A DNA stretch of 8,551 nucleotides from Acidobacteriota bacterium (GTDB lineage: Bacteria; Acidobacteriota; Vicinamibacteria; Marinacidobacterales; SMYC01): positions 1 to 8,551 of the forward strand of contig JAUVQL010000029.1 of NCBI GenBank assembly GCA_030598165.1, written 5' to 3'. Shown here in pieces: positions 174 through 8,441 of this stretch (position 1 is the first letter of the stretch; each line of letters opens with the position of its first letter). The position numbers were made by a program, and so were the translations under genes. A model generated the notes under the pieces. The model made no database searches. It was not told where the DNA came from and worked only from the letters and a program-made list of their open reading frames with translations.

Positions 174-773
174 ATGGAAGGTTATCGTTTCAACCTCGGT
201 TGGGTCGAGGTCATCACAGGAAGCATGTTCAGCGGCAAGAGCGAAGAAATGATACGCCGCCTACGAAGAGCTCAAATCGCCCGCCAGCGCGTACAGATCT
301 TCAAGCCCCATATCGACAATCGATATACATCTGATCACATCGTTTCCCACAGCGAAATGCGTATCAAAGCCGAGCTCGTTGCGACCGCGGCGGAGATCCT
401 CGAGAAATTGGACCACAAGACGGAGGTCGTGGGAATCGATGAAGGTCAGTTCTTCGACCCCTTTCTCGTCAACGTTTGCAATCAACTCGCCGACATGGGA
501 AAGCGGGTTATCGTTGCAGGATTGGATCAGGATTATCTCGGCAAACCTTTCGAGCCCATGCCACAACTCCTCGCCATCGCCGAGTACATTTCAAAAACAC
601 TCGCAATTTGCATGCGTTGCGGCAATCCAGCCAACCACACGCAGCGGCTCGTTTCGTCGACCGATCGGGTGGTTGTAGGCGGCTCAGAAACTTACGAGGC
701 GCGCTGTCGTCGCTGCTTCGAGCCCCATCCTATCTTGGAAGAGCCGGACGCATCCTCCCCCCAACCTAAATAG
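174..773 (+). CDS. tdk: Thymidine kinase (type II, zinc-binding)
   Basis: This enzyme phosphorylates thymidine to dTMP with ATP in the cytoplasmic pyrimidine salvage pathway. The 199-aa product has the P-loop GSMFSGKS at residues 16-23, then the RRLRRAQ helix. The Walker B/catalytic segment is DEGQFF (89-94), whose Glu is the expected general base; the more usual form is DEAQFF. A structural zinc ribbon is formed by CMRC (146-149) and CRRC (178-181). Length and motif order fit the bacterial type II family, and the N-terminus resembles the Firmicutes type more than E. coli Tdk. I chose ATG at 174, preceded by AGGAG at 165-169. An in-frame TTG at 156 would add six residues but lies upstream of that ribosome site. 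The last 82 bases, including the second Cys pair, overlap the convergent permease gene. No partner gene is visible on this strand. Confidence 0.97.
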
Positions 774-1672
774 GTACGCCGGAGTCCTTCCACCCACAAG
801 TTCGCGGCTAACACCGCCACAGTCAAAGCCACCGCAGGAACCATCAACGTCCACCAATACGTTGTCATAACCGTCAAGTTGTTCGCTGCGTCCGAAAGCA
901 TCTTCCCCCAACTCGATGCGGGCTCCGGAACGCCCAAACCAAGAAAGGAGAGCGTAGCTTCTCCCAGTAAGAAGTATGGAATTGTGATGCCTACCTGAAG
1001 AAGAATGAACGGCATCGCATTCGGGAGAATATGACGAAACAAGAGCCTCGCCCTCGTCGCGCCGAGGGCGACCGCGGAGGACACATAGTCTTCTTCGCGC
1101 AGAGAAAGAACTCTTCCACGGAGCAGACGAGAAACACTACACCAACCGACCGCGGCGAGGGACCCCACCAAGATCAGCGAGGCCTGACCGGCCGTGAGGT
1201 CGTCGGGGAACAGCTTTCTCACGGCGAGAACCAGATAAAGAGCCGGCAACGCCATAGCAAGCTCGGCCAATCGCATGAGAAAACGGTCCGTCAGACCGCC
1301 CATGAATCCTGCAGCGGCCCCAACTAGAGTGCCAAAGGCAACGGTGAAAATTACCCCGAGGGCAGCAGCGCTTACGCTCAATCTGGCACCATAAATGGAA
1401 CGGGAAAGCATATCTCGGCCCAGTGCATCGGTCCCCAAAAGGTAAGCTCTACATCCATCGAAGCCGAAGAAGTGACGTCGTCCCGTGTCGTCAACGGCAA
1501 ACCAATTCGTCCGGCAGTCCTCGGAAGGAAGCGCCGGAGGATGGTAGAAGCTCGACCGATCCTGGTAACGCGGGTCATAAGGCGCCAGGAAAGGAGCACC
1601 GACACCGACGGCCAATAGCACGAGCAGGAGGACAGCTCCCCACCGACCCGCACTGTCTCTCCACCAGAGCAC
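692..1672 (-). CDS. Oligopeptide ABC transporter permease, OppC/DppC type
   Basis: This is one of the two inner-membrane channel subunits of a peptide/opine/nickel-class ABC importer. The 326-aa product has an N-terminal membrane helix (about 12-30) ending in [10 protein letters not shown] periplasmic stretch contains [12 protein letters not shown] (80-91), the family hallmark that follows HP(F/L)GTD in relatives. Several further helices follow. The ATPase-coupling EAA loop, [20 protein letters not shown], is at about 195-214. An insertion before GTD (about 50-79) holds two cysteines (53, 74) that could form a disulfide. I chose GTG at 1672: it follows GGAGGAAGG with good spacing and lies just after the OppB-like stop (TAA 1676-1674). 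A longer frame from 1720 would need a TTG start inside the OppB-like gene. Conserved sequence ends near residue 300. The last 26 residues are a polar and basic tail read opposite the tdk 3' end. Confidence 0.95.
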
Positions 1673-1673
1673 T

Positions 1674-2645
1674 TTATCCTTCCTCCAGCCGAATCCGAGG
1701 ATCTGAAGCGGTAATGGCAATATCGGCGACCAAGTTGCCCAAGATCATGAGGACGGCCGCCAACAGCAGCACTCCTAGAACGAGGAATGAGTCTCTCGCT
1801 AGAAGCGCACTCCAAGCGAGTCGTCCCATCCCCGGCCAACCCATCACGACTTCGACGAGAAAGGCTCCATTGAGTAATCGGCCGACAGAGCTTCCTGCGA
1901 AGGTCAACACCGGGACCAATGCGGCAGGCAGACAGTGTTTGAGAAGGACTTGAAGATCACTCAAACCGCGAGAACGAGCCGCCTGTGCGAATCCCGATGG
2001 GAGAATCTCCATCAATGCACCACGGGATTGCAGGTAATAGAGGGGGGCGAGCGTAAGACTCAGCACCAAGCTCGGCAACAGTAAATGATTCACAAAATCA
2101 AGGAACTTGGCTCCGGGGCTAACAACCGCTAGCCCCACTGATGACCCGCCTCCAAGAGGAAACACACCGGTGGAGGCGGCCAACCCGAGAGCTCCGACGG
2201 CAATCACCAATGTCGGAACGGAAGCAGCCACAACGGCAAGACCCGAGAGAGTCCGATCCGATGCCCCGCCGGGACGTAGAGCAACGAGGAGGGCCAACGC
2301 CAGACCACCAAGAAAGGCTATAACGCCCGCGGAGACAACCAACGCCGTCGTATACAATACGGACTCCCCCAGAAGTTGCGCAACTGGTCTCTGAAAGGCC
2401 ATCGAGAATCCGAGGTCCCCTTTGAACAAGCCGAAAAACCAAGAAAGGTACTGTTCATACCAAGGCTGGTCTAAGCCATAGCGGCTCTCGAGAATCTTGA
2501 CTGTTTCCCGAGGGATGGAAGGATTTAGCAATAATCGGTCAACAAAAGATCCTGGCGCAAGATGCAGGAGTAAAAAGGATACGAGGCTTACCCCAACAAG
2601 GAGGGGCACCGCGGAGGCGAACCGGGCCAACACAACCCGATGCAC
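1674..2645 (-). CDS. Oligopeptide ABC transporter permease, OppB/DppB type
   Basis: This is the first channel subunit of the same importer. The 323-aa product begins with a helix (about 9-29, ending LLLHLAPG) typical of OppB proteins. It continues with RYGLDQPWYEQYLSWF (55-70) and GDLGFS (76-81), all strongly characteristic. Helices lie around 97-122, 134-155, 187-205, 244-265 and 286-310. The EAA loop (SGFAQAARSRGLSDLQVLLK, 217-236) contacts the ATPase, and the protein ends near DPRIRL as usual in the family. The start is GTG at 2645, with AGGAGG about 10 nt upstream. It is translationally coupled to the OppC-like gene, whose ribosome site lies inside its last codons. The pair follows the c-di-GMP gene by about 100 nt. 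Substrate specificity (di-/oligopeptide, nickel or other) cannot be read from the sequence. Confidence 0.95.
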   Translation of the reverse strand: MHRVVLARFASAVPLLVGVSLVSFLLLHLAPGSFVDRLLLNPSIPRETVKILESRYGLDQPWYEQYLSWFFGLFKGDLGFSMAFQRPVAQLLGESVLYTTALVVSAGVIAFLGGLALALLVALRPGGASDRTLSGLAVVAASVPTLVIAVGALGLAASTGVFPLGGGSSVGLAVVSPGAKFLDFVNHLLLPSLVLSLTLAPLYYLQSRGALMEILPSGFAQAARSRGLSDLQVLLKHCLPAALVPVLTFAGSSVGRLLNGAFLVEVVMGWPGMGRLAWSALLARDSFLVLGVLLLAAVLMILGNLVADIAITASDPRIRLEEG

Positions 2646-2746: not shown

Positions 2747-5260
2747 TCAACCCACACGGGGTTCCACGTTTTCCTCGGTTCCGAACAGACTCGGCTGATG
2801 AGTGCCAGGCTCGTATTCCTCCCGGCGACGACGGCCCTTGCGGCGACTCTTATGTTCGTACATGTTCTTATCCGCCGCCATCAGCAACGACTCGAGATCC
2901 GTTCCATCCGTTGGGTAGGACGCCAATCCCAACGATATCCCCACCGAGAGCATCTTACCGATGCCTACGTCGATCTCCGCCGATTCAACCGCATCTTGGA
3001 GACGATATGAAAACAAGCGCGCTTGCTCTGTTGTTGTCTTCGGCAAAACGGCAATGAACTCATCACCAGCGTAGCGCACCAATACGTCACTCTCTCGCAT
3101 CAGAGCTTTTAGAATGCGACCGACCTCCTTGAGAAAACGATCTCCGGAGTGATGGCCGTACCGATCATTGATACTTTTGAAATCATCGAGATCCATCTCG
3201 ATGACCGTCAAGGGCTCTTTGTATCGTTTTGCCTCGGACAGAGTCTGATCAAAAAAGATATAGAGGAAACGGGAGTTACTCAAACCCGTAAGACGATCCG
3301 TGAAAGCGTCTTCCTGCGTCTCCTCGAAGCGAATGGCGTTGTACAGCGCTATAGAAGCTCGGTTCGCCACAATTTCCATAAGACGTATGTGGTCGTCCGT
3401 ATAACGGAAACTCTGCCCCGCGTAGAGAGCGATGGCACCGATGGGCCGCTCCTCATGTGCCAGCGGCGCAAGTATCGCGTTTTGATACCGTTCACGGATG
3501 CCTTCCGGCAAACCCATCGTGTCCGGTCCCGGGTCGACGTTGTAGAGCATCCGGTTGTTCGCCGCCACCCAGCCAGCCAATCGGGTTCCAATCTCGATCG
3601 AGATGCCACGGAACGCATCCTGATTCAATCCGGCGGTGTGGGATGCATTGAGTACGGCACCGCTCTCATCGGCAAGATAAATGACCAGCGTATCGAAAGG
3701 AATGATCTTCGCGATTTTGGAAGCCAGAATCGTGAGCGTATCAGTGCGTGACAACGAGGTACCCATGGTCTGAGATATCTCGAATAGGTGAAAGACCTCG
3801 CGCTGCGGGGCAGTAATGAGATTCCCGAGAGCGGGTGGGTGTGGCACACCGATGATGTCTGGGGCACGCTTGGTATCCTTGTGCTCTTTTAGATCCACGA
3901 GCCGGTCAGGAATCTCAGAGCTCTCGAGAACCTCATCGACCAGGGGCACGATCTCGAGGAACGTGGAGAAAACCTGGGGATCGAATCGGTGTCTCTCTCT
4001 CTTCATCACGTCGACGGCGCCGCCTTGATCGAGTGAACGTGTGCGATACACCCTCCGGGCCCGAAGAGCCTCGTAGCAATCGGCCACTCTCAATATTCTC
4101 GATCCAAGAGGAATCTCTTCTCGCTGGAGCGCATCCGGGTAGCCACTCCCGTCCCAGTTCTCGTGATGATGCTTCACGATCTCGATGACCGGACCCTGAA
4201 AATCGATGGAGGAGAGTATCTGAGCTCCCACCACGGGATGAGTACTCATCTTCTGGAACTCGAGTTGTGTCAGCTTACCCGGCTTATGAAGGATATAGTG
4301 GGGAATAGAGATCTTTCCGACATCGTGAAGCATGGAAGCAATTTCGAGGGCTTCGTAAGTCCGATGATCCACGCCCATGGCTTTGGCCAATTTCAAAGTC
4401 ACGATTTGCGTACGGGAGACGTGCTTCCTGGTCTCACTTTTGTAGTCGGTGTGAATCTCGAGTGCATCGATGGAGTTGGCAAATGCCCTCACTGTTTGGA
4501 GGTAGAGACCGCGAACCTCCTCATACTTCTCGTTGTAGAAGCGATGGGCGTAGTAGACCACCATGAGGATCGGCAGCGCTAGCAAAAAGGCCCAGGGGCC
4601 GGCAACCCGTTGAAAAAAATAGACAACGGCCGCGCCGGAAGCGGACGCCATGAAGTATAACGGTACAAGAGGAAAGTTTTGACTCCAATGCTTCTTGAAA
4701 TTACTCTGTCCCGCAAGACTCATGACGGCGTGCACGCAAGTAGTATTAATAAGAAAGGACGTTCCCGCCATCAAAACTACCGGGAGAAGAATCTCATGGG
4801 CGGTCACAGGCCCGTCAGGCAGGAATACATTGTAAGCCCACCCATATAAGAAGGCGGAGATGCCGTTGACAGCCAAATTGAAAATGGACTGGATGTTACG
4901 CCACTGCAGGATTTTGCCGCGATGCTCGGGAGGCATTTTCCGAAGAGCCACCCAATAACTGACGAAATGAGACGGTCCGTTGGCTATGATACCGGGACCG
5001 ATCCCGTAGATCATGGTGATGGATAGCATGAGGCAGTCCGCCACTGCCATCCATGTAATAGTGCGTGGTATGCGTACGACCCAAGAGGAGCCTAACCAAG
5101 CGACAATGGTAATTCCGACGAGGGATGACCACTCTTCCCAACGGTAGTTGGCAGATAACCGGTGGAGGTCGTAGATCGCCCAGATATAGATCGGGACGGC
5201 CACCGCGACGACCGCGTTGACGAATAACTTAGCTTTGGCTGGCGGATTCTGCCAGTCCAT
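2747..5260 (-). CDS. Membrane c-di-GMP protein: 7TM, HD-GYP, GAF and GGDEF domains
   Basis: This 837-aa protein probably both makes and breaks cyclic di-GMP at the inner membrane. Residues 1-240 hold about seven hydrophobic helices (near 12-30, 45-61, 67-92, 124-147, 156-180, 198-216, 221-238), a putative sensor. An HD-GYP phosphodiesterase domain spans about 250-445. It has H280, HDVGK (312-316), H341, HHHENWDGSGYP (364-375) and D394, so the metal-binding set looks complete. A GAF domain covers about 485-645. The GGDEF diguanylate cyclase domain (about 650-805) has DLDDFKSINDRYGH (690-703) and the active-site variant AGDEF (731-735), a form known in active cyclases. An RESD inhibitory I-site lies exactly five residues upstream (722-725). 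The C-terminus is basic (RRKGRRRR), then polar. ATG at 5260 is the natural start, though the site before it (CGGGGGGACC) is a weak Shine-Dalgarno. It sits between the binding-protein and permease genes on the same strand, so a regulatory link with peptide uptake is possible but unproven. Confidence 0.96.
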   Translation of the reverse strand: MDWQNPPAKAKLFVNAVVAVAVPIYIWAIYDLHRLSANYRWEEWSSLVGITIVAWLGSSWVVRIPRTITWMAVADCLMLSITMIYGIGPGIIANGPSHFVSYWVALRKMPPEHRGKILQWRNIQSIFNLAVNGISAFLYGWAYNVFLPDGPVTAHEILLPVVLMAGTSFLINTTCVHAVMSLAGQSNFKKHWSQNFPLVPLYFMASASGAAVVYFFQRVAGPWAFLLALPILMVVYYAHRFYNEKYEEVRGLYLQTVRAFANSIDALEIHTDYKSETRKHVSRTQIVTLKLAKAMGVDHRTYEALEIASMLHDVGKISIPHYILHKPGKLTQLEFQKMSTHPVVGAQILSSIDFQGPVIEIVKHHHENWDGSGYPDALQREEIPLGSRILRVADCYEALRARRVYRTRSLDQGGAVDVMKRERHRFDPQVFSTFLEIVPLVDEVLESSEIPDRLVDLKEHKDTKRAPDIIGVPHPPALGNLITAPQREVFHLFEISQTMGTSLSRTDTLTILASKIAKIIPFDTLVIYLADESGAVLNASHTAGLNQDAFRGISIEIGTRLAGWVAANNRMLYNVDPGPDTMGLPEGIRERYQNAILAPLAHEERPIGAIALYAGQSFRYTDDHIRLMEIVANRASIALYNAIRFEETQEDAFTDRLTGLSNSRFLYIFFDQTLSEAKRYKEPLTVIEMDLDDFKSINDRYGHHSGDRFLKEVGRILKALMRESDVLVRYAGDEFIAVLPKTTTEQARLFSYRLQDAVESAEIDVGIGKMLSVGISLGLASYPTDGTDLESLLMAADKNMYEHKSRRKGRRRREEYEPGTHQPSLFGTEENVEPRVG

Positions 5261-5647
5261 GGTCCCCCCGAGCCCCAGTAAAGTGAGACCCTCAACCTAA
5301 ATGAATTATTCGGGTTTTCTACGTAAATAGTCCGACGGAGATACCTCCGCTAACTACAGGGACCACTCCACCTATCGAATTGCTCGGAAAGATAAATGAG
5401 TTGCTTTATAAGAGCTTGATTTTGAATCCTAGCACATGGTGTAACAGGGCGTCAAGATATGCAATTGGCTAAACACGAACAGGTTACTCGAACTGCAAGG
5501 AAGGATTCTGTTAGCAGGTTGAACGCCGGGTGCTGGTTGATGCCTTACACCTCGCGATCTCGCAAAGTCCACGGGTGGGGCCCCCCCGAGCCACCACCCC
5601 TTGAGTCAATAAAACTGAGGAAACTCTGTGAAAATATTGCTTCCGGC
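5261..5647 (-). other. Leader region of the c-di-GMP gene
   Basis: There is no credible gene on either strand. The region contains the promoter candidate at 5426-5455, followed by an inferred untranslated leader of about 160 nt. The leader holds a small hairpin (CGGAG-GTAT-CTCCG on the minus strand, near 5335-5350) and the G-rich sequence just before the start codon. That sequence recurs near 5582-5592 as the same 11-base core (CCCCCCGAGCC on the plus strand). Around 5571-5600, GGGTGG and CCACCC can pair but no T-run follows. I found no match to a c-di-GMP-I riboswitch core. Confidence 0.5.
5426..5455 (-). promoter_or_regulatory. Candidate sigma-70 promoter for the c-di-GMP gene
   Basis: On the minus strand, TTGACG (5455-5450) is followed after 18 nt by TAGGAT (5431-5426), with TG one base before the -10 (extended -10, TGC-TAGGAT). 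The -35 matches consensus at five of six positions and the -10 at four of six. The predicted start is near 5419, about 160 nt before the HD-GYP/GGDEF start codon. This would let that gene be transcribed separately from the peptide minigenes upstream. Confidence 0.45.
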
Positions 5648-5671
5648 TTAAATCCAAACGATTCCACGCAT
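5648..5671 (-). CDS. Heptapeptide minigene MRGIVWI, copy 2
   Basis: This is an eight-codon frame, ATG to TAA, encoding MRGIVWI. AGGAG lies 7 nt before the ATG (after CCTG), the ideal place for a Shine-Dalgarno sequence. The same peptide is encoded by copy 1 (5836-5859). Compared with that copy, codon 4 is ATC rather than ATT, codon 7 is ATT rather than ATC, and the stop is TAA rather than TGA. Every difference is silent, while the sequences on both sides have diverged; this points to selection on the peptide. The frame starts 19 nt after the stop of the 27-aa peptide gene and probably shares its transcript. Peptide genes this short are known: mccA of microcin C encodes MRTGNAN, and biarylitide precursors are pentapeptides. 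The C-terminal Asn required for microcin C is absent. I do not recognise a family, and the function is unknown. Confidence 0.55.
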   Translation of the reverse strand: MRGIVWI

Positions 5672-5690
5672 TGTCTATCTCCTCAGGGTC

Positions 5691-5774
5691 CTAACCACAA
5701 ATAATAATCCCGGGCGAGGTACGCTCTTCGAGCTCTTCCACGTTGAGTTCTTCGATTTCGGTGATAGTTTCCAT
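5691..5774 (-). CDS. 27-aa acidic peptide with hydrophobic Cys tail, precursor-like
   Basis: An ATG at 5774, 8 nt after AAGGAG, opens a frame of 27 codons ending in TAG. The N-terminal part (METITEIEELNVEELEER) is strongly acidic with regularly spaced Leu/Ile/Val, as in a short amphipathic helix. The C-terminal part (TSPGIIICG) is uncharged and hydrophobic, with one Cys next to the final Gly. An acidic ELNVEELEE-like leader before a short compact core is the usual plan of precursors of ribosomally synthesised, modified peptides. The core boundary and any modification are my inference, and no maturase or protease gene is visible nearby. The tail also loosely recalls short hydrophobic pheromones. 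The gene is flanked by the two heptapeptide copies, 61 nt after copy 1 and 19 nt before copy 2. No secretion signal or membrane span is present. Confidence 0.5.
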   Translation of the reverse strand: METITEIEELNVEELEERTSPGIIICG

Positions 5775-5835
5775 TACTTCTTCTCCTTTTTACATTGGCG
5801 CCATCGAATGGGTATGCTGCAACTTCAGCGACGCT

Positions 5836-5859
5836 TCAGATCCAAACAATTCCACGCAT
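5836..5859 (-). CDS. Heptapeptide minigene MRGIVWI, copy 1
   Basis: This is an eight-codon frame, ATG to TGA, with a full AGGAGG seven bases before the start (CCTAGGAGGTGTGGCC then ATG). It encodes the same peptide as copy 2 at 5648-5671; 21 of 24 coding bases are identical and the three differences are silent or stop-to-stop. It is the first of three closely spaced small frames. Its product has one Arg, then Gly and four hydrophobic residues including a Trp. It could be a secreted or reimported signal, a substrate for a modifying enzyme, or a leader peptide at which ribosomes pause. CTGAAGTTG-NAG motifs occur on both sides (near 5817-5829 and 5905-5917). Confidence 0.55.
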   Translation of the reverse strand: MRGIVWI

Positions 5860-6493
5860 GGCCACACCTCCTAGGAAAGACTCGAATCGAGAAACTGCAC
5901 CACTCCTCCAACTTCAGACACTCTTGCCTAATGGCAGCTCGGCCTACCGCCGACACTGACCAAAACGCCCTAAGTTGTGTTCAGGGGGAGAAGCGTTCGA
6001 GAGAACGGGACGGGATGGAACTTGAGAAGGTTCGAGCGATGACTACGAATAAATTGTGTCAATGACGAGCTTAAGTTGAATCTCGGTGCTCGCTTAGTCT
6101 TCTCAGGTCGTTCTCCGCAACCCGTTGACTACAAATAACTTCTTCCCTCTTGTACCTCCTATTCAGGACCAGACACTTGTTCTATTCAATGTAAACTCAA
6201 CTCATTAAAGGAATGGCACCATATAACGCAGGTCGGCGGTACTGAGCAAGATAGAAATGCTCCAGTAAAATGGTGCAAATGGACTATAAAACGCTTGGGA
6301 GCGCATCGTGGCACATGGCGTGATTCTATGTTTTTGCCATCGACTTCGTTTAGCACAACTTCAAACCTCATAACGACGGCCCCGCAGTGAGAGGTCCCTA
6401 TCGCCACTGTGCAAAATATGTCGGGTTTTACCCCCAGGTCAGTGACAGATGTCACGAATCGATAGATTTCCCGCACAAAATTGCCAAAAGAAG
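5860..6493 (-). other. Gene-poor region between binding-protein gene and peptide minigenes
   Basis: I find no convincing protein gene here. A perfect -35 hexamer TTGACA lies at 6062-6057 on the minus strand, but no good -10 follows it, so a promoter for the minigenes is only suggested. An AGGAGG at 6160-6155 has no usable start codon after it. Short palindromes include GTGACA-GA-TGTCAC (6441-6454) and GGGT-TTT-ACCC just before it. The motif TCGAAC followed by CTTCTC-like sequence occurs twice on the minus strand (about 6034-6023 and 6000-5988). I see no U-tract terminator after the binding-protein gene, so read-through into the minigenes is possible. Confidence 0.4.
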
Positions 6494-8194
6494 CTATTTT
6501 GAAGACAGCGCTATTTCCTCGCTGTTCCAAAGTGGCGGGCTCCAAAAGGGGGTGGGCTTCAGATTCTCGACGCGATGGCTCACACCAATGAGAGCATGGG
6601 GAACGACGAGCTCTATCAACGGCATTTCTTCTGCCAAGATCATCTGTACTTCGTCAAAGAGCTTCTTTCGTTCTGTAACATCGACAGCATACATGTTGCG
6701 CTCCATCAATGTGTCCACCCGGGCCTCCCAGTCGGTGGCGGGACGTTCCTGCGAGGGATTCCAGAAATGGAGGGGGCCTCGACTGAGCCACAGTGCGAGC
6801 CCCGCCGAGGGATCCGGGTCCGTTTGTGTCATCCCTAGGAGACAGGCTTCATAGTCGAAGCTCTGAGTGATCCGCACAATCAAGTCCGTCAGGTCCAACG
6901 GTGCCACGGTCATATCGATCCCGATTTGGGCGAGATCTTCTTGGATAATCGTGGCCATCCGAGCTCGATGACGGATTTCTACAGTCGTGATAAGAGTAAA
7001 ACTTACGGGTAGGTTTTCCCCGCTACGGAGCCCTCCACTCGAGTCCCAATGGAATCCCGCCTCTTTCAAGAGGCGTCGAGCTTTTTCACGGTCCAATGTC
7101 AATGGGGAGATGGCCTCATTGCGCCACATCCAATTTGCAGGTGAAACGGATCCAGCAGCAGAAGAAGCAAGACCGTGATACACGGCTTGTACGATAGCGG
7201 ATCGATCGATGGCCAGTGAGACGGCACGGCGGAATCTGACGTCCTCGAACCAAGCCCTTTTCTCGGCGGAAAGCGCGGAACTGCGGGGGTTCATATTGAA
7301 CCAAAGTCGCTCCGGTCTGGTACCAGGCCCGAGATCAAGCAAACGTAATCCGGAGCTGTCACGCCCCTTCAAGCTCGAAAAGTCCTCCGGCAACAAAGCT
7401 CCTTGAATGTCCAATTCTCCCGCGGAAAACTTGAGTAATCTCGCATTACTGTCAGGCAAGATCTCGAAGATGATGCCATCGAGGAGCGGGAGCTTCTCTC
7501 CTCGCGATCCTTGCTTCCAATAACGAGAGTTCCTCCGCAAGACCACCCTTTGACCTGGCAGGTATCGCTCCAGCACGAAAGGACCAAGACCAGCGATCTC
7601 CTCAGCGGAAGTGCCAACACCATAGGCTGAGGGGAAGCTGCCGCTTTCCAGTGCTGCCTCCAACCGGTGCGCGGGGAGGATATAGACACCATCGAAAATC
7701 CGTTCGACAACAGCCGTCCGACGCGGGATTTCGAAACGAACCGTGAGCTCGTCCACGACCTCAGGGACGAGCGCCTCACCGCCGATCTTGACGGTCTCAG
7801 CCAAGGGACTTGCCACATTAGGGTCATGCAGCGCTTCGAAGGTAAAGGCGACGTCTTTCGCAGTAAATGGGTGCCCGTCGGAGAAGACAACGCCAGAGCG
7901 GAGATGAAACGTGAGGGCTTTTCCATCTTCGGAAAAGTTCCATGATTCAGCCAGTTCGGGCTCGACTTCTTGAGTTTGAGGGTTGATTCGCACCAGCGTC
8001 GCATGGATCTGTTCACCAATCGTTTGGCTCACCTCGTCGACGGAGAGGAGGAGATTCCAGGAGAGGGGCTCGGCAGATGTACCCACAACTAGATAGCCCG
8101 CCGCTGGCGAAGGTGATGGTGCATCACCGGCGCAGGCTATCCATAGAGTGAAGACACAAAGTATCGCTGGACGCCACAGGATTCTCGTTCTCAT
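6494..8194 (-). CDS. Peptide/nickel-type ABC transporter substrate-binding lipoprotein (SBP family 5)
   Basis: This is the extracytoplasmic receptor that captures the solute and delivers it to the OppB/OppC-type permeases. The 566-aa product begins with a signal peptide (MRTRILWRPAILCVFTLWIAC). The likely lipidated residue is Cys21 in a slightly atypical lipobox (LWIAC, Trp at -3). The mature part has the SBP_bac_5 hallmarks: ELAESWNFSEDGKALTFHLR followed by GVVFSDGHPFTAKDVAFTFE (about 80-120). It also has VRFRRAVSLAIDR, AGFHWDSSGG, and a C-terminal EVQMILAEEMPLIEL segment. I chose ATG at 8194, preceded by GGGAG at 6-nt spacing and immediately before the signal peptide. An ATG at 8248 would add 18 residues rich in Trp and Pro, has no ribosome site and would displace the signal. 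It is separated from its probable permeases by the minigenes and the c-di-GMP gene. Ligand identity cannot be inferred. Confidence 0.96.
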   Translation of the reverse strand: MRTRILWRPAILCVFTLWIACAGDAPSPSPAAGYLVVGTSAEPLSWNLLLSVDEVSQTIGEQIHATLVRINPQTQEVEPELAESWNFSEDGKALTFHLRSGVVFSDGHPFTAKDVAFTFEALHDPNVASPLAETVKIGGEALVPEVVDELTVRFEIPRRTAVVERIFDGVYILPAHRLEAALESGSFPSAYGVGTSAEEIAGLGPFVLERYLPGQRVVLRRNSRYWKQGSRGEKLPLLDGIIFEILPDSNARLLKFSAGELDIQGALLPEDFSSLKGRDSSGLRLLDLGPGTRPERLWFNMNPRSSALSAEKRAWFEDVRFRRAVSLAIDRSAIVQAVYHGLASSAAGSVSPANWMWRNEAISPLTLDREKARRLLKEAGFHWDSSGGLRSGENLPVSFTLITTVEIRHRARMATIIQEDLAQIGIDMTVAPLDLTDLIVRITQSFDYEACLLGMTQTDPDPSAGLALWLSRGPLHFWNPSQERPATDWEARVDTLMERNMYAVDVTERKKLFDEVQMILAEEMPLIELVVPHALIGVSHRVENLKPTPFWSPPLWNSEEIALSSK

Positions 8195-8441
8195 AGCAGT
8201 CTCCCAACCGACCTTCGTCGGCCACGGGTAGGGCCATGGTACGCCCATAGAACATTGGCTGAAGGTTGCGCGATGCCCACCGGTCCCTTCAAATGCTAAG
8301 TTGTTATTGATGTATCTTTTCCAGGCATTCTAACATCAAAGACCAAAAAAATAGCCTAAAATGGTATTTGTTTTCGAGGGGTGGGATATCTTGCATGTCC
8401 CTTCTAGGTAAGCTATATAAATACCAGGACTTCTGTAAATC
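8195..8441. other. Upstream region of the binding-protein gene
   Basis: There is no supported gene. The region is AT-rich from about 8290 to 8440. A weak minus-strand promoter match, TTGATG then GATACA after 17 nt (about 8338-8310), is too poor to call. An open frame crossing 8336-8551 on the minus strand has no ribosome site, a protein-like composition I do not recognise, and runs through the inverted repeat, so I do not treat it as coding. Confidence 0.4.

What the first reader, a model, noticed from the sequence alone, without database searches (positions are those of the whole stretch)
5648..5859. The same heptapeptide (MRGIVWI) is encoded twice by minigenes with strong ribosome sites
Both frames have ATG, seven codons and a stop, and each has a strong Shine-Dalgarno (AGGAGG or AGGAG) exactly 7 nt upstream. 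The 24-nt coding units differ at three positions, all silent or stop-to-stop, while flanking DNA has diverged. This pattern suggests selection for the peptide rather than a DNA repeat. Known genes of this size include mccA (MRTGNAN) and biarylitide precursors, but this sequence lacks the C-terminal Asn of MccA and no MccB-like enzyme or P450 is visible. Standard gene callers ignore frames this short, so it would be missed.
Basis: partly seen in the sequence, partly recalled or inferred. Interest (0 to 1): 0.88.

Follow-up and report, generated by a model that had tools for sequence, protein, structure and literature searches.

The report
Conserved seven-codon gene in micropeptide operon
In a small group of uncultured Acidobacteriota, a gene only seven codons long is kept by selection beside a second tiny gene for a leader-type peptide, in a small operon that matched no described family here and may make peptide signals or other peptide products.

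Summary
On the minus strand, between a peptide-binding protein gene (SBP_bac_5) and an HD-GYP/GGDEF gene, lie two copies of an MRGIVWI minigene with strong Shine-Dalgarnos. Four relatives keep the arrangement at the same place (one minigene copy each): MRGILWV, MSGILWV, MRGILWV, MNGILWV, each followed by a 28-31 aa peptide with an acidic leader ending APG and a mostly hydrophobic tail of 4-5 residues. Codons are scrambled while the peptide is kept (Leu5 and Val7 each use four codons in four genomes; pS 0.71, pN 0.17), and spacers have diverged (29% identity against 78%). All five loci share a CRP-like palindrome upstream and a 10-11 bp stem-loop downstream. The long peptide's leader takes the place of double-glycine leaders in other proteins, so it is probably an export or processing leader. 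No modifying enzyme was found among the neighbours scanned. Best guess: a two-peptide export or signalling operon; RiPP precursors are the main rival. The coding operon is near certain; its function is inferred.

The parts
5836..5859 (-). minigene copy 1, MRGIVWI, stop TGA (the upstream copy, syntenic with the single copy in relatives)
   Evidence: orthologues in L002, L003, L004, L092
5867..5872 (-). Shine-Dalgarno AGGAGG of copy 1, 7 nt from ATG
5691..5774 (-). peptide 2, METITEIEELNVEELEERTSPGIIICG (27 aa), leader of VEELEERx(A/S)PG type plus a 5-residue tail
5783..5787 (-). Shine-Dalgarno AGGAG of peptide 2, 8 nt from ATG
5648..5671 (-). minigene copy 2, MRGIVWI, stop TAA, downstream of peptide 2 (seen only in the window)
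5679..5683 (-). Shine-Dalgarno AGGAG of copy 2, 7 nt from ATG
6439..6456 (-). CRP-like palindrome CGTGACATCTGTCACTGA, present in all five loci
6413..6418 (-). -10-like TATTTT, 22 nt after the 16-nt palindrome (21 nt in the four relatives), i.e. class II activator spacing; picked out by eye, inferred
5573..5600 (-). G+C-rich stem-loop after the operon, possible terminator; no T tract, and the terminator scan did not list it
   Evidence: 10-11 bp stem-loops after peptide 2 in all four relatives
5426..5455 (-). promoter-like TTGACG-18-TAGGAT before the next gene, downstream of the stem-loop; at chance level by itself
   Evidence: similar TTGA(C/T) elements at this place in relatives, by eye
6494..8248 (-). 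neighbour: family 5 solute (oligopeptide-type) binding protein; a second possible start is the ATG at 8197
2747..5260 (-). neighbour: HD-GYP/GAF/GGDEF protein (837 aa) with a hydrophobic N-terminal part
1674..2645 (-). oligopeptide-type permease B (in the window; absent from this place in L002-L004)
692..1720 (-). oligopeptide-type permease C (in the window; absent from this place in L002-L004)

Best explanation
The locus is a stand-alone micropeptide operon. SHOWN by sequence conservation: a seven-codon gene encoding M-x-G-I-(L/V)-W-(V/I) and a 27-31 aa peptide with a conserved acidic leader ending (A/S)PG and a short tail, both kept as peptides by purifying selection and syntenic in five loci. 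INFERRED: transcription starts at a class II promoter activated by a CRP-family regulator that reads the conserved palindrome, and ends at or near the stem-loop before the HD-GYP/GGDEF gene. INFERRED: the long peptide is exported or processed like a double-glycine-leader peptide, releasing a 4-6 residue peptide (for example (G)IIICG, (G)LVWT, (G)MIVVL). INFERRED: the heptapeptide is made as it stands, at high yield because the ORF is so short and well initiated. Most likely the two small peptides act as cell-to-cell or self-sensing signals, with uptake by the adjacent oligopeptide-binding protein. That last step is the weakest.
For: Frame, residues and minigene Shine-Dalgarno kept in 4 of 4 relatives that have the orthologous neighbour gene. 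Codon-level test: heptapeptide pS 0.71, pN 0.17; 18-codon leader block pS 0.62, pN 0.15. Spacers diverged. The pattern with Shine-Dalgarno and any residue 2 hits 5 of 192 class genomes, of which 4 are the cassette and 1 ends in TGG. Palindrome YGTGA-N6-TCACTGA in 5 of 5 loci with a TAnnnT-like element 21-22 nt later, against 19 GTGA-N6-TCAC in 849,823 bases of 78 other loci. Stem-loop of 10-11 pairs after the operon in 5 of 5. Leader exchange: of 48 relatives of the G010 protein, 46 carry the NNGWG core, behind an LEERxAP leader (23), a double-glycine-like leader (22) or a Sec-like signal (1); the two leaders align as LTIEELKQ-IAGG and LVIEELEERIAPG. The SBP_bac_5 gene is upstream in 5 of 5 loci.
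Against: No receptor or dedicated exporter is among the neighbours scanned. A C39 peptidase domain was found in 3 of the 4 cassette genomes, on other contigs than the cassette, but not in G001, and not in G010, which also has an LEER-leader protein (completeness of these genomes is not told). The binding-protein family occurs in 106 of 191 class genomes, so its vicinity is weak evidence for a functional link. Permeases follow the HD-GYP/GGDEF gene only in the window (0 of 3 relatives where this can be seen). Synteny in related species also comes for free. Peptide 2 of L092 has only a weak GGAG. Peptide 2 and the LEER leaders match no Pfam or NCBIfam model above cut-off. The promoter and terminator scans of the region are at chance level and list neither the palindrome promoter nor the stem-loop. 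The -10-like elements were picked out by eye. No expression data exist. The window's minigene is 581 nt from the palindrome against 293-302 nt in relatives.
Confidence: 0.4

Rival explanations
1. RiPP precursors: the heptapeptide is a minimal, leaderless substrate (as mccA and the biarylitide bytA are) and peptide 2 a leader-core precursor; tailoring enzymes encoded elsewhere act on the invariant Trp or on the C-terminus.
For: Length of exactly 7 and G-I-x-W in 6 of 6 copies. Precedent that 7 codons favour reiterative translation and that MccB prefers the formylated heptapeptide in microcin C (PMC6495379, abstract and passages), and the 5-residue bytA product (PMC8708641, abstract and passages). 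Leader-tail layout of peptide 2.
Against: No P450, MccB-like, radical SAM, YcaO or lanthipeptide enzyme among 5 window proteins, 10 flanking proteins of L002 (one of them without any family) and 10 of L003, L004 and L092. The characterised minimal RiPPs named here have the enzyme beside the precursor. The heptapeptide C-terminus (V/I) is not the Asn of MccA.
Confidence: 0.25
2. Translational or transcriptional attenuator: the heptapeptide is a leader peptide (upstream ORF) whose translation or ribosome stalling, for instance at Trp or Ile codons, controls peptide 2.
For: It lies 52-77 nt upstream of peptide 2 in all five loci, with a strong Shine-Dalgarno and a conserved sequence that includes Trp.
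Against: In the window a second copy with its own Shine-Dalgarno lies downstream of peptide 2, with no further Shine-Dalgarno-led ORF to control before the stem-loop (one search lists there only a GTG frame that starts inside the copy itself). The spacer is not conserved (29% identity), and the five folded spacers show no unusual stability (z -1.7 to +1.7). No Rfam family.
Confidence: 0.15
3. Non-signalling small peptides: a two-peptide membrane-active or antimicrobial pair, or a regulator of a membrane protein such as the HD-GYP/GGDEF sensor.
For: Both peptides, in the expected final form, are short and hydrophobic; the sensor gene is next door in every locus, and its orthologue (E <= 1e-150) was found in 4 of 192 class genomes, the same four that have the cassette.
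Against: The sensor has its own promoter-like element after the stem-loop; co-occurrence may be shared descent in one small clade; no immunity-like gene recognised.
Confidence: 0.15
4. Chance ORFs or a DNA repeat.
For: The two window copies are 95% identical over 20 nt.
Against: Conservation with scrambled synonymous codons in four other species; 0 of 200 shuffles.
Confidence: 0.02

Closest known systems
mccA of microcin C (heptapeptide MRTGNAN)
   Same: A seven-codon gene starting MR; 7 codons favour reiterative translation (PMC6495379, abstract and passages seen).
   Different: No MccB-like enzyme among the neighbours scanned; C-terminus V/I instead of Asn; hydrophobic sequence; second leader-type peptide in the operon.
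biarylitide bytA (five-residue precursors such as MNYLH)
   Same: Minimal, leaderless micro-gene (PMC8708641, abstract and passages; that automatic detection misses it is from the abstract start of PMC13417212 in the listing).
   Different: No P450 among the neighbours scanned; no pair of aromatic/His residues to crosslink.
Opp-imported hydrophobic pheromones of Firmicutes (SHP/Rgg, XIP/ComR, PrgX peptides)
   Same: Short hydrophobic peptides and an oligopeptide-type binding protein nearby (PMC9765709, passages; the resemblance to particular pheromones is recalled).
   Different: Gram-negative phylum; no RRNPPA-type receptor among the neighbours scanned; the precursor has an acidic APG leader rather than a Sec-type signal; the heptapeptide has no leader.
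Double-glycine-leader peptides (bacteriocin and GG-type precursors)
   Same: The leader of peptide 2 aligns with LxxEELxxIAGG leaders that precede the same NNGWG core in other proteins.
   Different: APG instead of GG; no adjacent C39 transporter; tail of only 4-5 residues after APG.

Membership tests
microcin C-type mccA | MccB-like adenylating enzyme encoded next to the precursor | tested here: not met
   Neighbours scanned in the window, L002, L003, L004 and L092: SBP, HD-GYP/GGDEF, permeases, tdk, heme and cytochrome assembly genes, NTPase, GHMP kinase, NUDIX, ligase, Ku
microcin C-type mccA | C-terminal Asn accepting the nucleotide | tested here: not met
   6 of 6 copies end in Ile or Val
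biarylitide bytA | P450 gene beside the precursor and two crosslinkable aromatic/His residues | tested here: not met
   No P450 in the neighbours scanned; only one aromatic residue, Trp6
RRNPPA/Opp pheromone systems | Cognate cytoplasmic receptor encoded beside the peptide | tested here: not met
   No HTH-TPR gene among the neighbours scanned; the rest of the genomes was not searched for one
RRNPPA/Opp pheromone systems | Peptide imported by an oligopeptide-binding protein | not testable with these tools
   SBP_bac_5 gene adjacent in 5 of 5 loci; binding not testable
Double-glycine-leader peptides | L(S/T)xxELxxIxGG leader (recalled) | tested here: inconclusive
   Peptide 2 aligns with L-x-x-E-E-L and has A-P-G in place of GG; no NCBIfam or Pfam leader model hit for peptide 2
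Double-glycine-leader peptides | C39 peptidase/ABC exporter in the genome | tested here: inconclusive
   PF03412 in G002, G003, G036, not in G001 or G010 (completeness not told)
Attenuator leader peptides | Conserved alternative RNA structure between leader ORF and controlled ORF | tested here: not met
   Spacer identity 29%, no unusual folding in 5 of 5 loci, no Rfam match

The most novel reading that the evidence does not exclude
A Gram-negative counterpart of Opp-imported peptide pheromones in Acidobacteriota: a CRP-controlled operon makes two tiny hydrophobic peptides, one leaderless from a seven-codon gene and one released from a PG-type variant of the double-glycine leader, which are taken up by the adjacent oligopeptide-binding protein.
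Probability: 0.25. Interest if true: 0.88.

Novelty: new variant of a known kind. Interest (0 to 1): 0.72.

Why it matters
I know of few genes of seven codons or fewer, and those that I know (mccA, bytA) are recognised by an enzyme beside them. Here the evidence for selection comes from the peptide alone, in uncultured bacteria, and shows that such genes can be found by asking for a kept peptide with scrambled codons. The partner peptide's leader is of a kind that takes the place of double-glycine leaders elsewhere, which gives a handle on a wider set of small exported peptides. If the peptides signal, the locus would make peptide communication testable in a phylum where I know of none (one search, whose 15 listed papers of 94 held no mention of Acidobacteria).

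Tried and rejected
Chance or DNA repeat: rejected. Readthrough of the TGA stop: the in-frame continuations of the upstream copy in the window and of the single copy in the four relatives (five checked) look unrelated by eye, though the window's is open for 50 codons or more; the second window copy ends in TAA. Attenuator: second copy downstream of peptide 2, spacer unconserved, no unusual structure. RNA family: no Rfam match at gathering score in the window or in L002, L003, L004, L092. Mobile element: no match of the cassette DNA in phage or plasmid records. Exact peptide elsewhere: none in genome contigs; the viral hit is the end of a longer reading frame. Other loci in hand: Shine-Dalgarno plus heptapeptide with any residue 2, and the leader motif, occur only in L002, L003 and L004 of the 81 loci. 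Wider phylum: the pattern hits 5 of 396 genomes: G001 is the cassette, three end in TGG (not a stop), one (G348, MDGIVWV*) has no peptide 2 and no shared context by eye; the reversed control pattern hit 3 genomes, so these are at chance level. A known family for peptide 2: none (one weak spore-protein hit below cut-off). The recalled LEPR-XLL motif as a relative of LEER leaders: no NCBIfam hit; 2 papers hold the term (listing only), not pursued. Leader profile hits in G019, G067, G081 (E 0.0005-0.013) were not accepted. Papers: MRGIVWI 0, GNNGWGNG 0, EELEER/LEERIAP/LEERTAP 16 listings, by title and abstract start unrelated; searches on pheromones, minimal RiPPs, YejABEF and small proteins were seen as listings except for the four papers opened, and showed nothing on this locus. 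In those four I saw abstract and passages, passages and abstract with section list; no whole text was read.

Full report
Observation. The window holds two minus-strand minigenes for MRGIVWI, 5859..5836 and 5671..5648, each with a strong Shine-Dalgarno 7 nt upstream. They differ at 3 of 24 positions without changing the peptide. The coding pattern has 2 hits in the window and none in 200 shuffles. A scan for ORFs of 3-60 codons with a strong Shine-Dalgarno gives 8 in the window.

Setting. Upstream is a family 5 solute-binding protein (6494-8248), of the kind that binds oligopeptides. Downstream are an HD-GYP/GAF/GGDEF protein (2747-5260), two oligopeptide-type permeases and, convergent, thymidine kinase. 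Some relatives of the HD-GYP/GGDEF protein are named Acidobacteria or Vicinamibacteria by their sources. No genome is held for the window.

Relatives. Loci were fetched through an alignment of that neighbour protein, not through the peptides, so the finding of peptides there is independent. The three loci with close orthologues (59-63% identity) all have the cassette: L002 MRGILWV (5533) and MNNVQETIEIVELTVEELEERTAPGLVWT; L003 MSGILWV (2423) and MDNVQDVQEIVELTVEELEERTAPGMIVVL; L004 MRGILWV (3124) and MENTQEEMQEVLELIVEELEEISAPGLVVVL. A profile of the long peptide (A2) matched 6 of 192 class genomes: these three, a fourth with the cassette, G036 (L092), with MNGILWV (1411) and MEQEVQEIVELTVEELEERTAPGVIVAF (1501), then G010 (below) and a weak hit in G019. 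All four lie between a solute-binding gene (PF00496 in each) and the HD-GYP/GGDEF gene (in L092 only its start is on the contig, recognised by eye). In the 81 loci, Shine-Dalgarno plus heptapeptide with any residue 2, and the leader motif, occur only in L002, L003 and L004. Peptide 2 has AGGAG in the window, L002, L003 and L004 but only GGAG in L092.

Distribution. In whole genomes of the class, the Shine-Dalgarno-plus-heptapeptide pattern hits 5 of 192; four are the cassette genomes and the fifth ends in TGG. An earlier, narrower pattern without the Shine-Dalgarno hit 3 of 193, all cassette, with 1 hit of the reversed control (it missed G036, which has Asn at position 2). The HD-GYP/GGDEF orthologue (E <= 1e-150) is in 4 of 192, the same four. 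The solute-binding protein (E <= 1e-80) is in 106 of 191, with the four cassette genomes as best hits at 47-52% identity. In the phylum sample the pattern hits 5 of 396, the reversed control 3: one cassette (G001), three TGG endings, and one unrelated MDGIVWV. So, among genomes sampled, the cassette belongs to a small clade.

Selection on the peptide. Six minigene copies give pS 0.71 and pN 0.17 over 15 pairs (pairs share ancestry, so this is descriptive). Leu5 is CTT, TTA, CTA, CTG and Val7 GTT, GTA, GTG, GTC in the four relatives. Mean pairwise identity over five loci is 78% in the ORF, 29% in the spacer to peptide 2 and 32% in 60 nt upstream; the last 54 nt of the peptide 2 leader have 74%. 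The 18-codon leader block of peptide 2 gives pS 0.62 and pN 0.15. Residue 2 is free (R, S, N) and residues 3-7 are G-I-(L/V)-W-(V/I).

Operon anatomy. All five loci have a palindrome YGTGA-N6-TCACTGA whose first base lies from 17 nt before to 38 nt after the last base of the solute-binding gene. A TAnnnT element, picked out by eye, follows 21 nt later in four relatives and 22 nt in the window, which places the palindrome centre near -41.5, the class II position of CRP (recalled). In 849,823 bases of 78 other loci GTGA-N6-TCAC occurs 19 times. The minigene starts 293-302 nt after the palindrome in relatives and 581 nt in the window. After the last peptide gene all five loci can form a stem-loop of 10-11 pairs, -16 to -21 kcal/mol. 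Longer stretches around it fold no better than shuffles in four loci (z -0.6 to -1.3; in L002 the best fold of the long stretch pairs otherwise) and better in L092 (z -2.9). There is no clear T tract and the terminator scan does not list it, so termination is a guess. A promoter-like element for the HD-GYP/GGDEF gene follows (at chance level; by eye in relatives).

Peptide 2 leader. In G010, MEKKDKLELVIEELEERIAPGVI precedes a KGNNGWGNGAEGTNPGS... sequence. Of 48 database relatives of that 71-aa protein, 46 carry the NNGWG core. By script, and by eye for the four that the script left as other, 23 have an LEERxAP leader, 22 a double-glycine-like leader (MRNLTIEELKQIAGG and the like; one of these, P0157, also starts with a signal-like stretch), and one a Sec-like signal. 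The other two of the 48 have the LEER leader without that core. Six leaders of each of the two main kinds, chosen by me, were aligned with one peptide 2: L, E, L and the last G are invariant. Of six GG-leader proteins scanned, three have hits below cut-off with bacteriocin or RiPP leader models; two LEER-leader proteins have none. So the LEERxAP segment takes the place of a double-glycine leader. That supports export or processing of peptide 2, with a tail of only 4-5 residues after PG. The tails (IIICG, LVWT, MIVVL, LVVVL, VIVAF) resemble the heptapeptide in chemistry (G followed by aliphatic residues, with Trp in L002).

Function. No modifying enzyme, receptor or exporter was found among the neighbours scanned. 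C39 peptidase domains were found in three of four cassette genomes, on other contigs, and not in G001 or G010. I favour a two-peptide export or signalling operon with possible uptake by the neighbouring binding protein, but the last link is weak because that protein family is common in the class. RiPP precursors are the main rival; the length of seven has a known benefit for microcin C (PMC6495379, abstract and passages). YejA, an oligopeptide-binding protein of an ABC importer, was found with peptides bound, though its tests with unrelated peptides gave no evidence of binding (PMC10924461, abstract). The attenuator reading is disfavoured by the extra copy downstream of peptide 2 and by the diverged spacer.

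Verdict. The coding operon is close to certain (about 0.93, my estimate). The mechanism given is about 0.4. It is not a member of the microcin C or biarylitide families, whose defining enzymes were looked for and not found among the neighbours scanned.

Noticed in passing
L093:1042-1257 and proteins P0121-P0168: Small proteins (60-93 aa; 46 of the 48 fetched) with an NNGWG(N/Q) core occur behind three kinds of N-terminal leader (LEERxAP, double-glycine-like, Sec-like); no Pfam or NCBIfam family was found for the G010 member.
   Followed up: partly
window 692-2645: Two oligopeptide-type permease genes sit between the HD-GYP/GGDEF gene and thymidine kinase in the window; in L002, L003 and L004 the thymidine kinase follows directly.
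   Followed up: partly
L002 5308, L003 2189, L092 1171: A GGAGGTG element with no ATG close after it recurs in the roughly 300-nt stretch between palindrome and minigene in three of the four relatives (not in L004); its role is unknown.
   Followed up: no
L135 (G348), minigene at 1510 of the reverse strand: A Shine-Dalgarno-led MDGIVWV* in another genome of the phylum, without peptide 2 or shared neighbours; probably chance.
   Followed up: partly
L004 (G003), solute-binding gene 1097-2806: The solute-binding gene is interrupted by one in-frame TGA in this MAG; could be a sequencing error or a pseudogene.
   Followed up: no
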